A DNA stretch of 64,000 nucleotides, taken from Brachionus manjavacas. Its lineage: Eukaryota > Rotifera > Eurotatoria > Ploima > Brachionidae. The stretch is from the NCBI GenBank assembly GCA_019054805.1, contig JAHQIY010000001.1, positions 9,190,501 to 9,254,500 of the forward strand. Reading direction: 5' to 3'. Position 1 is the first letter of the stretch; the number at the start of each line of letters is the position of its first letter. The position numbers were made by a program, and so were the translations under genes. Under the pieces are notes generated by a model. The model had not been told where the DNA came from, ran no database searches, and saw only the letters and a list, made by a program, of their open reading frames with translations. Below, piece after piece: positions 22,199 through 45,972 of this stretch.

Positions 22199-23500
22199 AT
22201 GAACTATTTACTAGAATACAATTTAATATCTAATAAACAGCACGGGTTTCTTCCTTACAGACCATGTGCAACAAACCTATTAGAGTTCATTAATAAAGCA
22301 ACTTATCAATATGAAAAAGGCAAAAATGTTGACATTGTGTATACTGACTTCTCAAAAGCTTTTGATAAAGTTCCGCATGGAAAATTGATAATAAAACTTG
22401 AATCATATGGTATAAATGGTAAACTTCTAAGCTGGATTGAGTCGTTTTTGATTGGGCGGGTACAAAGAGTTGTCTTAGGTAATGATGTATCAAATTGGGA
22501 GGTAGTTACAAGCGGAGTACCACAAGGATCCGTACTTGGTCCAATCCTATTTATAATTTATATCAATGATCTCCTTGAGAGCTTCAACAGTTTTTGTCTT
22601 GGATATGCTGATGACTTAAAATTAATTGGTTTCTCCGAATTCTCGAACGTAGGATCGTTAGAACTTCAGAAAGACCTCGATCTCCTAATGAAATGGACGG
22701 AAAACTGGTCAAAAAATCTAAATCTGAACAAATGTAAGGCAAATACTTATTTAGGGAAGAGAAAAGAAAAAGCCAAAAACTTATTATCAAATCAAAATAT
22801 ATCTCATTTGATAGAAGAGAAAACAGAAGAAAAGGATTTGGGTGTTTTTATTACAAATGATTTGAAATGGAATAAACAATGTCCTGAAGCAGCTATGAAA
22901 GCTAACCGAATACTGGGTCAAATAAAAAATTCTTTCAAAAACGTTAGCCGAGAATCATTAGGACTTCTCTATACATCACTTGTGAGACCCCATTTGGAGT
23001 ATGTAGTAGGAACATATGGGGTCTCAACCTGGAATCTGTATTTAAAAAAAGACATTATTATTCTTGAAAAAGTGAAAAGAAGAGCTAAAAAACTGATTGA
23101 TTATACCAGAACCAAGTCTTATGAAGACAGATTGAAATACTTAAATCTTATGAAACTTGAAAATCGTCGTTTAAGAGGAGATTTAATTCAAATATACAAA
23201 ATTTTAAAAGGTTTTGAAAAAGTATCGTTAACAATTGGCATCAATATCGCTTGTGTAAAAAGCCTAAGAAGACCACATGACAATAGATTGGTCCGAGAAA
23301 TAAATCGCGGAGGCTCTTTTAGATACAATTTCTTAACAAATCGGTGCGTAAAATTATGGAACAGTTTATCATTGAATGTTGTTAATGCGAAAACAATAAA
23401 AAACTTCAAAGTGGTCATTGACAATGAAGTCTTTGGAATATTGAAAAGCAAAGTCTGCCAAAGCCTTACTAATTTATATTTCAGTAAAATACTAAATTGA
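22199..23500 (+). mobile_element. CR1-like reverse transcriptase, 5'-truncated, frame open for 433 codons
   Basis: Reverse transcriptase of a non-LTR retrotransposon. The motifs run in order without a stop: NKQHGFLPYRPCATNLLEF, YTDFSKAFDKVPH (catalytic Asp kept), [30 protein letters not shown] (YADD box), KDLGVFITNDLKW, YTSLVRPHLEYVVG, KVKRRAKKLI and RRLRGDLIQIYKILKGFEK, then the C-terminal WNSLSLNVVNAKTIKNFK. The endonuclease and the first reverse transcriptase motifs are missing, so the copy cannot move on its own despite the intact frame. It belongs to the same group as the decayed copies at 10368 and 56220 and looks the youngest. Codon use is as AT-rich as the host. Confidence 0.92.
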
Positions 23501-40429: not shown

Positions 40430-40510
40430 TTCAGAAAATATTAATTCCATAGATAACCTTTTGATTTATCACAAATTTGAGCTATCTGCTTCATGATAGA
40501 AACATAATAT
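40430..40510 (-). promoter_or_regulatory. SECIS element in the 3' UTR of selenoprotein L
   Basis: In transcript orientation the ATGA core is at 40494-40491. An eight-pair stem follows: AGATAGCT (40487-40480) with GGTTATCT (40458-40451), two of the pairs being G-U. An unpaired AA/AAA lies at 40478-40476, 12 bases after ATGA. A mini-stem ATTT/AAAT with a five-base loop caps the apex (form 2 SECIS), and the 3' core GGAA is at 40448-40445, giving the tandem G-A pairs. Spacing and layout match animal SECIS elements. It starts about 35 bases after the stop codon, near but allowed. This was read by eye and not folded. Confidence 0.8.
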
Positions 40511-40528
40511 TAAGAAATGAAAAGAATA

Positions 40529-41509
40529 CTAAAATTTGGATTCTAAAAATTTCAATAAAGTTTGAGCTGATGGCCGGTCCGGAGGAGTTTTACTCTTATA
40601 CGAATAAATGAGTCTAAAATTCGAATCGTTTGAATATTGCAAAATAAAATTACCGCCCATTTGGTGCGGATCATCCTCCACATCTTGATAGGAACCTGGC
40701 AAAGTCCCTAACCTAATTAACTGCTCAGCGTAATAAATTAAAGTTTCTGAATTCCAAACTTTTACATATGAATTTGGCAAACCGAAAAGTTTGTACAAAC
40801 GACGATCTTGATCGCTAACCATGTCAAACTGTTGATCCGAGAAACTAGCATGATTTTCCATAAACCATCTGTATGCTCCTTTCGGTTCACCAAAACTTAC
40901 CAAAACAACTTGGCAATTTAACTTCAGAAAATCGGATGCTTTTTTCTGTAATTCTTTAACATGCTCGCGTCAAGGCAATCATGCAAAATGCCGCAGCATA
41001 ACCATCATAATAAAACTTTTATCCGAAACTGAATTCAGCTTTTTTCTAAAATTCAAATGAAGATTGTTAGCACAAGTTTTGTCAAATTGTTCAGGCTTAT
41101 CTTCCATAATCTGTGACAAAAAAAACTCATTTTTAATATTTTCTGGCAGCAAGTCTTCACATTGAAAGCTTTGATCTAAATTAACAGTTTCTTTTGATTC
41201 AATCTCTTTCAAAAAATCATTCCATTCCATCAAAAAAGTCCTCATTTTTTCCGAGTAGCCTTCTTTTTCTTCTAAATTTAACTCAAAATCAACATTATCC
41301 AATTCCTCTACAAAATCTTCGTTTAGCTTGGTATTCATTTGTTTCATTAAGTCTGCGTAGAAACGAATAAACCGGCCCATTTTAAATATCCGTGTTTTGC
41401 AAAATGATTCTACATCTTTGCTCAAGTCTTGCCTTGCTTCGTCCAGTACAGTTTGAAGCTTGGAGAAATTTTCTTCAAGCAATGGTATTTTTAAATCGAC
41501 GCCCGTCAT
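40529..41509 (-). CDS. SELENOL: Selenoprotein L, peroxiredoxin-like, two selenocysteines (UxxU)
   Basis: One frame of 327 codons on the minus strand, ATG at 41509 to TAA at 40529, interrupted only by two TGA codons at 40981-40979 and 40972-40970 (residues 177 and 180). Read as selenocysteine they give RHFAULPUREHVKEL, exactly where AhpC/TSA-like relatives (such as PRXL2C) have their Cys redox motif. Downstream the thioredoxin-fold family motifs continue: VVLVSFGEPKGAYRWFMEN, DQDRRLYKLFGLPNS, KVWNSETLIYYAEQ, DDPHQMGGNFIL and PPDRPSAQTLLKFLE. The first 160 residues are mainly helical. Selenoprotein L is the known UxxU member, able to form a diselenide bond, described from fish and other aquatic organisms. 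Conservation on both sides of the stops in the same frame and the SECIS just downstream rule out a simple pseudogene. The gene is intronless and divergent from NDUFV1. Confidence 0.93.
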
Positions 41510-42026
41510 TTTAGACGCCGAATAACTAAAATTATTTAAATAAAACTTTTTTAAATTTTATATTTATAGAGAAAGAGATAGTCTCATGACTTAGTAAAAT
41601 TTTCATTGAAGATAAAAAAAATTGCTGAGTAATTGTTCGCTTCTAAGTTGCCAAAAATTTAGCAGACTTTTTCAATAAGCCTCACGCCACCAAAATTGGC
41701 TCGATTTGTGAGCATAAACAAACTTTGCATTAAAATATGTACAGAGTTAAATTATAGTTTTGAAAGCATACTAAATGACTAGAATTTTAAAGATTGTATA
41801 ACTTGATAGTTAGGTAAGAGAAATAATGTTCAAATAATCAATTACATAACAAAAATTATTTAATAGAGCTGGTTTTAAACATTTTGGAATTTTTTAGATT
41901 TTCCGAACAAAAAGGATGATTAATAATTCGATCAACAAAATTTTACCATTTGTTAAAAATTCTTCATTAGGTATCTATTTATTAATAAATTGCGAATTAA
42001 ATTTTTTTATAACTTTTTATTTTTAG
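41510..42026. promoter_or_regulatory. Shared interval between the divergent SELENOL and NDUFV1 genes
   Basis: The start of selenoprotein L (minus) and the first certain NDUFV1 exon (plus) are 517 bases apart. The interval must hold both promoters plus the first NDUFV1 exon and its intron. No clear TATA box or other site was recognised. Confidence 0.4.
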
Positions 42027-43689
<1,663 letters not shown>

Positions 43690-44577: not shown

Positions 44578-45972
44578 CTATTTCTTTTTGGTGGCTTTTT
44601 CGGCTTTTTCAGCAGCTTTGGTCTTGGTACCTTGGGTAGTCTTCTTTTCGACCTCCTTGATGACACCGACAGCAACAGTTTGTCTCATATCACGGACAGC
44701 GAAACGACCCAATGGAGCGTATTCAGAGAATTTCTCAACACACATTGGTTTAGTTGGGATCAATTTGATGATGGCGGCCTCTTGTGATTTCAAAGTTTTT
44801 GGATTAAGTTCCAATTGTTTACCAGAACGACGATCGACTTTTTCTAACAATTCGGAAAATTTGCAAGCAATGTGAGCAGTGTGACAATCCAAAACTGGAG
44901 TGTAACCAGCGCTGATCTCACCTGGATGGTTCAATACAATTACTTGAGCAGTGAAATTAGCTGTCTCTAGAGCTGGATCGTTCTTGCTGTCTGAGGCAAC
45001 AAAACCTCTTCTCAAATCTTTGACTGAAACGTTTTTAACGTTGAAACCGACATTGTCACCTGGCACGGCTTCGGTCAAAGCTTCGTGGTGCATTTCCACT
45101 GATTTTACTTCAGTGCTCAAGTTGGCTGGAGCAAAAGTGACAACCATACCTGGCTTGATGACACCAGTTTCGACTCTACCGACTGGCACTGTACCAATAC
45201 CGCCAATCTTGTACACGTCTTGCAATGGCAATCTCAATGGCTTGTCAGTTGGTCTTGATGGTGGAACAATGGCGTCCAAAGCTTCCAACAAGGTCTTGCC
45301 GCTGAAGTTACCCTCTTTCTTTTCCGAAGTCCATCCTTTGTACCATGTCATGTTTGGCGATGCTTCCAAAATGTTGTCACCGTTCCAACCAGAGATTGGT
45401 ACGAATGGAATTTGTACTGGATTCCAACCGATTTTCTTGATGAAAGCGCTCACTTCGGATTTGATTTCCTCGAAACGTTTCTCGCTGTATGGTGGCTCAG
45501 TTGAGTCCATCTTGTTTACGGCCACAATCATTTGCTTGACACCCAAAGTGTAGGCCAACAAAGCGTGTTCTCTTGTTTGACCGTTCTTTGAGATACCGGC
45601 TTCAAATTCACCGACACCAGCAGCTACGATCAATACGGCACAATCGGCTTGTGATGTACCAGTGATCATGTTCTTGATGAAATCTCTGTGACCTGGAGCA
45701 TCAATAATGGTTACATAGAATTTTGATGTTTCAAATTTCCACAATGAAATATCAATGGTAATACCACGTTCTCTCTCGGCTTTAAGTTTGTCCAATACCC
45801 AAGCGTATTTGAATGAGCCTTTGCCCAATTCGGCCGCTTCTTTCTCGAATTTTTCGATGGTTCTCTTGTCAATACCACCGCATTTGTAGATCAAGTGACC
45901 AGTTGATGTTGACTTACCAGAGTCTACGTGACCAATCACGACAATGTTAATATGGGTCTTTTCCTTTGGCAT
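44578..45972 (-). CDS. EEF1A: Translation elongation factor 1-alpha
   Basis: GTPase that brings aminoacyl-tRNA to the ribosome. One uninterrupted exon codes 464 residues, the normal animal length. The GTPase motifs are intact: GHVDSGKS at residues 14-21, switch I region [30 protein letters not shown] near 91, NKMD at 153-156 and SGWNGDN near 194. Domains 2 and 3 follow ([20 protein letters not shown]; the C-terminal [20 protein letters not shown]). The tail is Lys/Ala-rich. G+C and codon use are clearly higher than in neighbouring genes, as expected for a highly expressed gene. Absence of introns in the coding region contrasts with FIP1L1 and NDUFV1 nearby. An acceptor-like TCTTGTCTAG about 40 bases before the ATG suggests an intron in the 5' leader. 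Confidence 0.98.

What the first reader, a model, noticed from the sequence alone, without database searches (positions are those of the whole stretch)
40430..41509. Selenoprotein L with two in-frame UGA codons (UxxU) and a SECIS hairpin
The minus-strand frame continues through two TGA codons at residues 177 and 180 into 147 more residues of the same peroxiredoxin-like fold. Both TGAs fall exactly at the CxxC redox positions. A form-2 SECIS candidate (ATGA, 12 bases, AA, capped mini-stem, GGAA) lies just after the TAA. Conventional gene calling would split this into two hypothetical proteins. If the host is a rotifer or similar small invertebrate, it extends the known range of this rare diselenide protein.
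Basis: partly seen in the sequence, partly recalled or inferred. Interest (0 to 1): 0.9.

Follow-up and report, generated by a model that had tools for sequence, protein, structure and literature searches.

The report
Rotifer selenoprotein L with two selenocysteines
A rotifer genome carries what is very probably a working gene for selenoprotein L, an animal redox protein with two selenium-containing amino acids at its active site that public annotations of related rotifers cut out; the family is known, this is one more animal group.

Summary
Window 41509-40529 (minus) is one coding frame: ATG, in-frame TGA at codons 177 and 180 (RHFA-U-LP-U-REH), stop TAG (not TAA). The read-through product matches NCBIfam "SelL-related redox protein" across both TGAs (128.3 bits, cut-off 120); no second place in the genome exceeds 33 bits. 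Annotated Brachionus plicatilis and B. calyciflorus homologs lack the TGA segment. Of 110 related proteins retrieved, 49 reach the motif: 40 show W at both places (TGA read as Trp, inferred), 4 at the one intact place, 5 end at the first; none shows Cys. The genome has tRNA-Sec(UCA), eEFSec, SepSecS, SPS2 with TGA, two SBP2-like genes, a weak PSTK candidate, and eight SelW-like copies with TGA. A form-2 SECIS candidate starts 34 bases after the stop, but alone is only suggestive (P 0.01-0.03; 14 other window sites score higher). SelL is already reported in sponge, placozoan, cnidarian, annelid, amphioxus, tunicate and fish. So: new member of a known family, in a phylum for which my searches of an open-licence library listed no report.

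The parts
40529..41509 (-). Selenoprotein L coding sequence, open without an intron in this genome, 326 codons plus TAG
   Evidence: same first and last residues as B. plicatilis P0001
40979..40981 (-). first in-frame TGA, Sec177 (first U of UxxU)
   Evidence: five relatives end exactly before this place
40970..40972 (-). second in-frame TGA, Sec180 (second U of UxxU)
   Evidence: W at this place in 40 relatives and in P0016
40547..41047 (-). thioredoxin/peroxiredoxin-like SelL domain (about residues 155-321)
   Evidence: NF040769; Pfam AhpC-TSA and AhpC-TSA_2; genome hit with 2 TGA
41048..41509 (-). N-terminal region of about 154 residues without a Pfam match; aligned N-terminal regions exist in P0001, P0002, P0005, P0006 and P0035
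40420..40511 (-). SECIS candidate, form 2: helix I, ATGA 40494-40491, helix II, AA 40478-40477, mini-stem, GGAA 40448-40445
   Evidence: not found by Rfam, which also finds none of four control flanks

Best explanation
The locus is the selenoprotein L gene of a Brachionus-type rotifer. Ribosomes decode both UGA codons as selenocysteine, using tRNA-Sec, eEFSec and an SBP2-like protein bound to one SECIS element in the 3' UTR, giving a thioredoxin-fold, peroxiredoxin-like protein whose UxxU takes the place of CxxC and can form a diselenide. Shown here: a conserved frame across the TGAs, family identity, conservation of both places at the protein level, presence of most of the machinery. Inferred: actual Sec insertion, SECIS function, diselenide formation (recalled for the family from Shchedrina et al. 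2007, whose title I saw only in reference lists), and a thiol-oxidoreductase or antioxidant role.
For: The read-through product matches NF040769 SelL-related redox protein at 128.3 bits over cut-off 120; the genome's best place for that model contains 2 TGA, the next reaches 33 bits. Against P0001 of B. plicatilis 148 of 166 residues (1-166) and 115 of 121 residues (206-326) are identical, so the part after the TGAs is kept. Of 110 retrieved relatives 49 reach the motif: 40 W/W, 3 W at the first place followed by other sequence, 1 beginning at the second W, 5 ending exactly before the first place, 0 Cys (these are not 49 independent genes). P0041 ends at RHFA while P0003, identical over 62 of 63 residues, reads on RHFAWLPWRDH: the best reading is one gene translated with TGA as stop and as W. 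Machinery: tRNA-Sec 77 bits with TCA anticodon, SepSecS, SPS2 with its own TGA, two SBP2-like genes, eEFSec GTPase part E 8.4e-86 to 5izk, TGA in 8 of 8 SelW-like copies on C6. A SECIS candidate lies in the right place.
Against: The SECIS candidate is weak alone: P 0.01-0.03, 14 of 33 other listed window sites score higher, and unconstrained folding does not prefer it (z -1.0, -0.7, -0.1). In the six-frame genome search the same locus scores 114.6 bits, under the SelL cut-off. Of nine proteins scanned with that model only the window product and P0044 pass the cut-off; P0003, P0006, P0035, P0047, P0052, P0073 and P0074 score 78 to 119. The PSTK candidate is far below its cut-off (60.5 against 382). 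No DNA of another rotifer could be read, so codons in relatives and SECIS covariation are untested. No fish SelL was retrieved. No expression data.
Confidence: 0.95

Rival explanations
1. The TGA segment lies in an intron, and the true product is the annotated form without UxxU (as in the B. plicatilis and B. calyciflorus entries).
For: Both annotated Brachionus proteins lack the segment.
Against: The two entries skip different pieces, and B. calyciflorus keeps part of what B. plicatilis drops; the skipped residues are conserved as protein in relatives. Pipelines that forbid in-frame stops are expected to produce such gaps (established knowledge).
Confidence: 0.03
2. A recently broken gene (pseudogene) or a sequencing error.
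For: Two stop codons in the frame.
Against: Both stops are TGA, three codons apart at the redox places, with matching signs at the same places in the 49 relatives that reach the motif; no frameshift; 115 of 121 residues identical to B. plicatilis after them.
Confidence: 0.01
3. TGA is read as tryptophan through a code change in the host nucleus.
For: 40 public relatives show W at both places.
Against: The genome has tRNA-Sec and eEFSec; TGA stands at known Sec places of SPS2 and SelW; the matched parts of eEFSec and SBP2 hold no stop; P0041 stops where P0003 shows W; W at both redox places would be senseless.
Confidence: 0.01

Closest known systems
Selenoprotein L (SelL/SELENOL) of fish, tunicates and other animals
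   Same: UxxU with two Sec codons in a peroxiredoxin-like protein, with a SECIS candidate after the stop; homologs from Branchiostoma and Trichoplax sp. H2 were retrieved, genera for which PMC3473315 lists SelL
   Different: Host is a rotifer; no fish SelL sequence was retrieved, so identity to fish is not measured
NCBIfam NF040769 SelL-related redox protein
   Same: Over the curated cut-off, 128.3 bits against 120
   Different: Model made for prokaryote annotation; the match was made with U passed as C; the six-frame genome score is 114.6
SelU / PRXL2 proteins (Pfam AhpC-TSA_2)
   Same: Same Pfam family
   Different: Two Sec instead of one or none; the genome has separate AhpC-TSA_2 places on C26 and C19, of which C26 reaches 33 bits on the SelL model and C19 is not listed. 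That these two are PRXL2-like is my recall of motifs

Membership tests
Selenoprotein L | two in-frame UGA codons three apart (UxxU) | tested here: met
Selenoprotein L | UxxU inside a thioredoxin/peroxiredoxin-like domain of the SelL subfamily | tested here: met
   NF040769 residues 155-321, 128.3 bits over cut-off 120; Pfam AhpC-TSA residues 157-258; but 114.6 bits, under cut-off, in the six-frame search
Selenoprotein L | SECIS element in the 3' UTR | tested here: inconclusive
   candidate in place and similar to the SPS2 one, P 0.01-0.03; Rfam finds neither it nor four control flanks
Selenoprotein L | host has Sec decoding machinery | tested here: met
   PSTK only weak
Selenoprotein L | both Sec places conserved in orthologs | tested here: met
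   49 of 49 relatives that reach the motif are consistent and none has Cys; 61 of 110 do not reach it. Protein-level evidence; codons of relatives not read
Selenoprotein L | close similarity to fish SelL | not tested
   no fish SelL among the hits
Selenoprotein L | Se incorporation and diselenide bond | not testable with these tools
   needs 75Se labelling or mass spectrometry
SelU / PRXL2 | a single Sec or a CxxC at the active site (recalled) | tested here: not met
   two TGA, UxxU
SelU / PRXL2 | closer to SelU/PRXL2 than to SelL in a tree | not tested
   no tree was built; only the SelL model was compared

The most novel reading that the evidence does not exclude
SelL may be under near-absolute demand for two selenocysteines: among the animal-like relatives retrieved here no Cys form was seen at either place (0 of 49 that reach the motif). 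If that holds in a full survey, the diselenide itself, not merely a faster thiol, is what the protein needs, and a small culturable rotifer becomes a model for testing it.
Probability: 0.3. Interest if true: 0.5.

Novelty: new member of a known kind. Interest (0 to 1): 0.35.

Why it matters
It indicates that rotifers keep the two-selenocysteine protein SelL, which PMC3828610 (passage) reports as lost in flatworms, and that public Brachionus entries lack its active site, one of them being named prostamide prostaglandin F synthase. Brachionus is a culturable model (general knowledge), so the poorly understood function of SelL could be studied in it.

Tried and rejected
Rfam gave no SECIS at the locus, but also none at four other selenoprotein 3' flanks (three SelW, one SPS2), so this was not counted against the SECIS. 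Folding without constraints does not single out the SECIS. The first eEFSec candidate (L017) proved to be mitochondrial EF-Tu; L037 replaced it. A MAFFT alignment of five SECIS candidates was poor, so no covariance model was built. Of six SelW flanks scored, three gave 24.4-26.7 and three gave 19.2, 10.3 and none; two further near-duplicate copies were not scored there. The scanner's pattern is recalled knowledge, written after reading the finding. My notebook says about 45 window sites of score 20 or more; the output lists 34. PDB sequence search gave only marginal matches, best E 0.13. No fish SelL came from three homolog searches. GPx gave four matches in two places, none with a stop inside the matched part; not pursued. 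Translating L001, L002 and L043 on the wrong strand or frame gave nonsense at first, mended.

Full report
What is there. On the minus strand an ATG at 41509 opens a frame of 326 codons ending at TAG (40531-40529), interrupted only by TGA at codons 177 and 180. The two TGAs sit in RHFA-U-LP-U-REH.

What it is. The read-through product matches Pfam AhpC-TSA (1.2e-9, residues 157-258, spanning both TGAs) and AhpC-TSA_2 (6.3e-8, residues 187-294), and NCBIfam NF040769 SelL-related redox protein with 128.3 bits against a cut-off of 120 over residues 155-321. In the genome (G000, 114 Mb in 61 contigs; the window is C1:9190501-9254500) this is the best place for that model, 114.6 bits, with 2 TGA counted inside. 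That six-frame score is under the cut-off; that the stops cost it score is my inference. The only other place listed, on C26, reaches 33 bits. The search is exon by exon and scores only best candidates. Of nine proteins scanned with the model, the window product and P0044 pass the cut-off, and P0003, P0006, P0035, P0047, P0052, P0073 and P0074 score between 78 and 119; for those eight relatives it is the only family listed at E 0.001 or better, P0003 being listed at E up to 1. AhpC-TSA_2 itself has three places in the genome: this one, C26 and C19; the other two look PRXL2-like by recalled motifs.

Host. G000 is unnamed. The nearest named protein is P0001 of Brachionus plicatilis: 81% identity in the search, 91% in the aligned columns. 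Next is P0002 of B. calyciflorus. A Brachionus-type rotifer is therefore the inferred host. Some contigs of the assembly looked bacterial to me (C43 and C21); I did not test the origin of contigs systematically. The genes cited below lie on other contigs: C6, C9, C11, C4 and C20, each over 1.2 Mb, C7, and C48 of 159 kb, on which SepSecS is split into three pieces as if by introns.

Conservation of the TGAs. P0001 lacks the stretch around residues 168-205 and P0002 a smaller, different piece. Identity to P0001 is 148 of 166 before and 115 of 121 after the skipped part. Three homolog searches listed 5, 42 and 94 proteins, 110 distinct. Of these 110, 61 do not contain the motif region. Of the 49 that do, 40 show W at both places, 3 show W at the first and then other sequence (P0004, P0005, P0042; an intron there is my inference), 1 (P0016) begins just before the second W, 5 end exactly at RHFA, and none has Cys. 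They are not independent: P0041 and P0003, for instance, appear to be one gene. W is what TGA becomes in a pipeline that uses a TGA=Trp code; this is inferred, as the DNA was not read. The support is the pair P0041, which ends at RHFA, and P0003, which reads on as W; they are identical over 62 of 63 residues before that point, the exception being P0003's start residue. The second search profile held W in two of its five rows and the third in six of twelve rows, so W forms were easier to find; the first search used Cys at both places and listed no Cys form either.

Machinery in the same genome. tRNA-Sec on C6, 77 bits over its gathering score of 47, the only one of 38 matches over it, with TCA anticodon by ARAGORN. 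SepSecS on C48. SPS2 on C9 with a TGA in KG-U-GC. eEFSec on C11: its GTPase part has E 8.4e-86 to human eEFSec 5izk. A PSTK candidate on C7, 60.5 bits, far under its cut-off of 382. The SelW-type family Rdx has ten matches; the eight on C6:3152857-3169168 all have TGA before the GY or SF place; those on C43 and C17 were not examined for this.

SECIS. Thirty-four bases after the TAG comes ATGA (40494), then 12 bases, AA, a mini-stem, and GGAA (40448-40445), with helix I pairing outside. With the apical AA held open the core folds into an 8-bp helix II and a 4-bp mini-stem at -7.2 kcal/mol; the SPS2 candidate of the same genome, which also begins ATGAAGC, gives -9.4. Scanner scores: SelL 21.6; SPS2 23.8; SelW 24.4, 25.9, 26.7, 19.2, 10.3 and none. 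Chance: 1% of 500 shuffles of 200 nt, 3% of 400 shuffles of 300 nt and 1.7% of 1500 random window pieces. In the whole window 34 sites score 20 or more and 14 of them score above the SelL candidate. It is plausible and rightly placed (about 485 bases after the first TGA) but not proven. Rfam finds neither it nor the four control flanks.

Relation to what is known. PMC3473315 (passages; section 5) lists one SelL each in Amphimedon, Trichoplax, Nematostella, Capitella and Branchiostoma floridae, and none in Lottia. PMC2874816 (passages) reports it in Ciona from EST data. PMC3316567 (passages) says that among vertebrates it is found only in fishes and that one SECIS serves both Sec. PMC3828610 (passage) says flatworms lost it. 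PMC2398784 (passages) calls SelL a Prx-like protein present in prokaryotes and eukaryotes. PMC13188914 (passages) lists UxxU forms of other prokaryotic proteins. My third search also returned Branchiostoma and Trichoplax sp. H2 proteins that lack the UxxU part (P0052, P0059, P0073, P0074) and two barnacle fragments (P0063, P0069), which fits those reports. The defining paper (Shchedrina et al. 2007) is not held and is known to me from reference lists and recall.

Is it in print? Searches for rotifer, Brachionus or Adineta with selenoprotein, selenocysteine, SECIS or selenoprotein L, and broader ones, showed no title or abstract start reporting SelL in a rotifer. Lists were cut at 20. One search found one paper with both 'selenoprotein l' and 'rotifer' (PMC2874811, on diplomonads), which I did not open. 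Passages in three rotifer-related papers hold nothing on it. The library holds open-licence papers only, so this is no proof of novelty.

Verdict. A conserved selenoprotein L gene in a rotifer, with relatives mis-annotated: a new member of a known family.

Noticed in passing
G000 C6:3152857-3169168 (L033-L034): Cluster of eight SelW-like places on both strands, each with a TGA before the GY/SF place; two pairs give the same or nearly the same sequence, as if a block was duplicated.
   Followed up: partly
window 41509-42688: SelL lies head to head with an NDUFV1-like gene (Complex1_51K domain in ORF 41990-42688 +), about 480 bases from the SelL ATG: possible shared promoter with a mitochondrial complex I subunit.
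   Followed up: no
window 44578-45972 (-): Intact eEF1A-like gene; frames of the same length (470 codons) with the same kind of match recur at C1:9449063, 9459485 and 9477019, suggesting several eEF1A copies on this contig.
   Followed up: no
window 22199-23500 (+): Reverse transcriptase domain (RVT_1), probably part of a retroelement.
   Followed up: no
public records behind P0001, P0002, P0052, P0073: Annotated proteins of B. plicatilis, B. calyciflorus, Branchiostoma belcheri and Trichoplax sp. H2 lack the UxxU stretch; P0001 is named prostamide prostaglandin F synthase.
   Followed up: partly
G000 C4:7293079 and C20:850912: Two SBP2-like places very similar to each other in and after the L7Ae domain, perhaps a duplication.
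   Followed up: no
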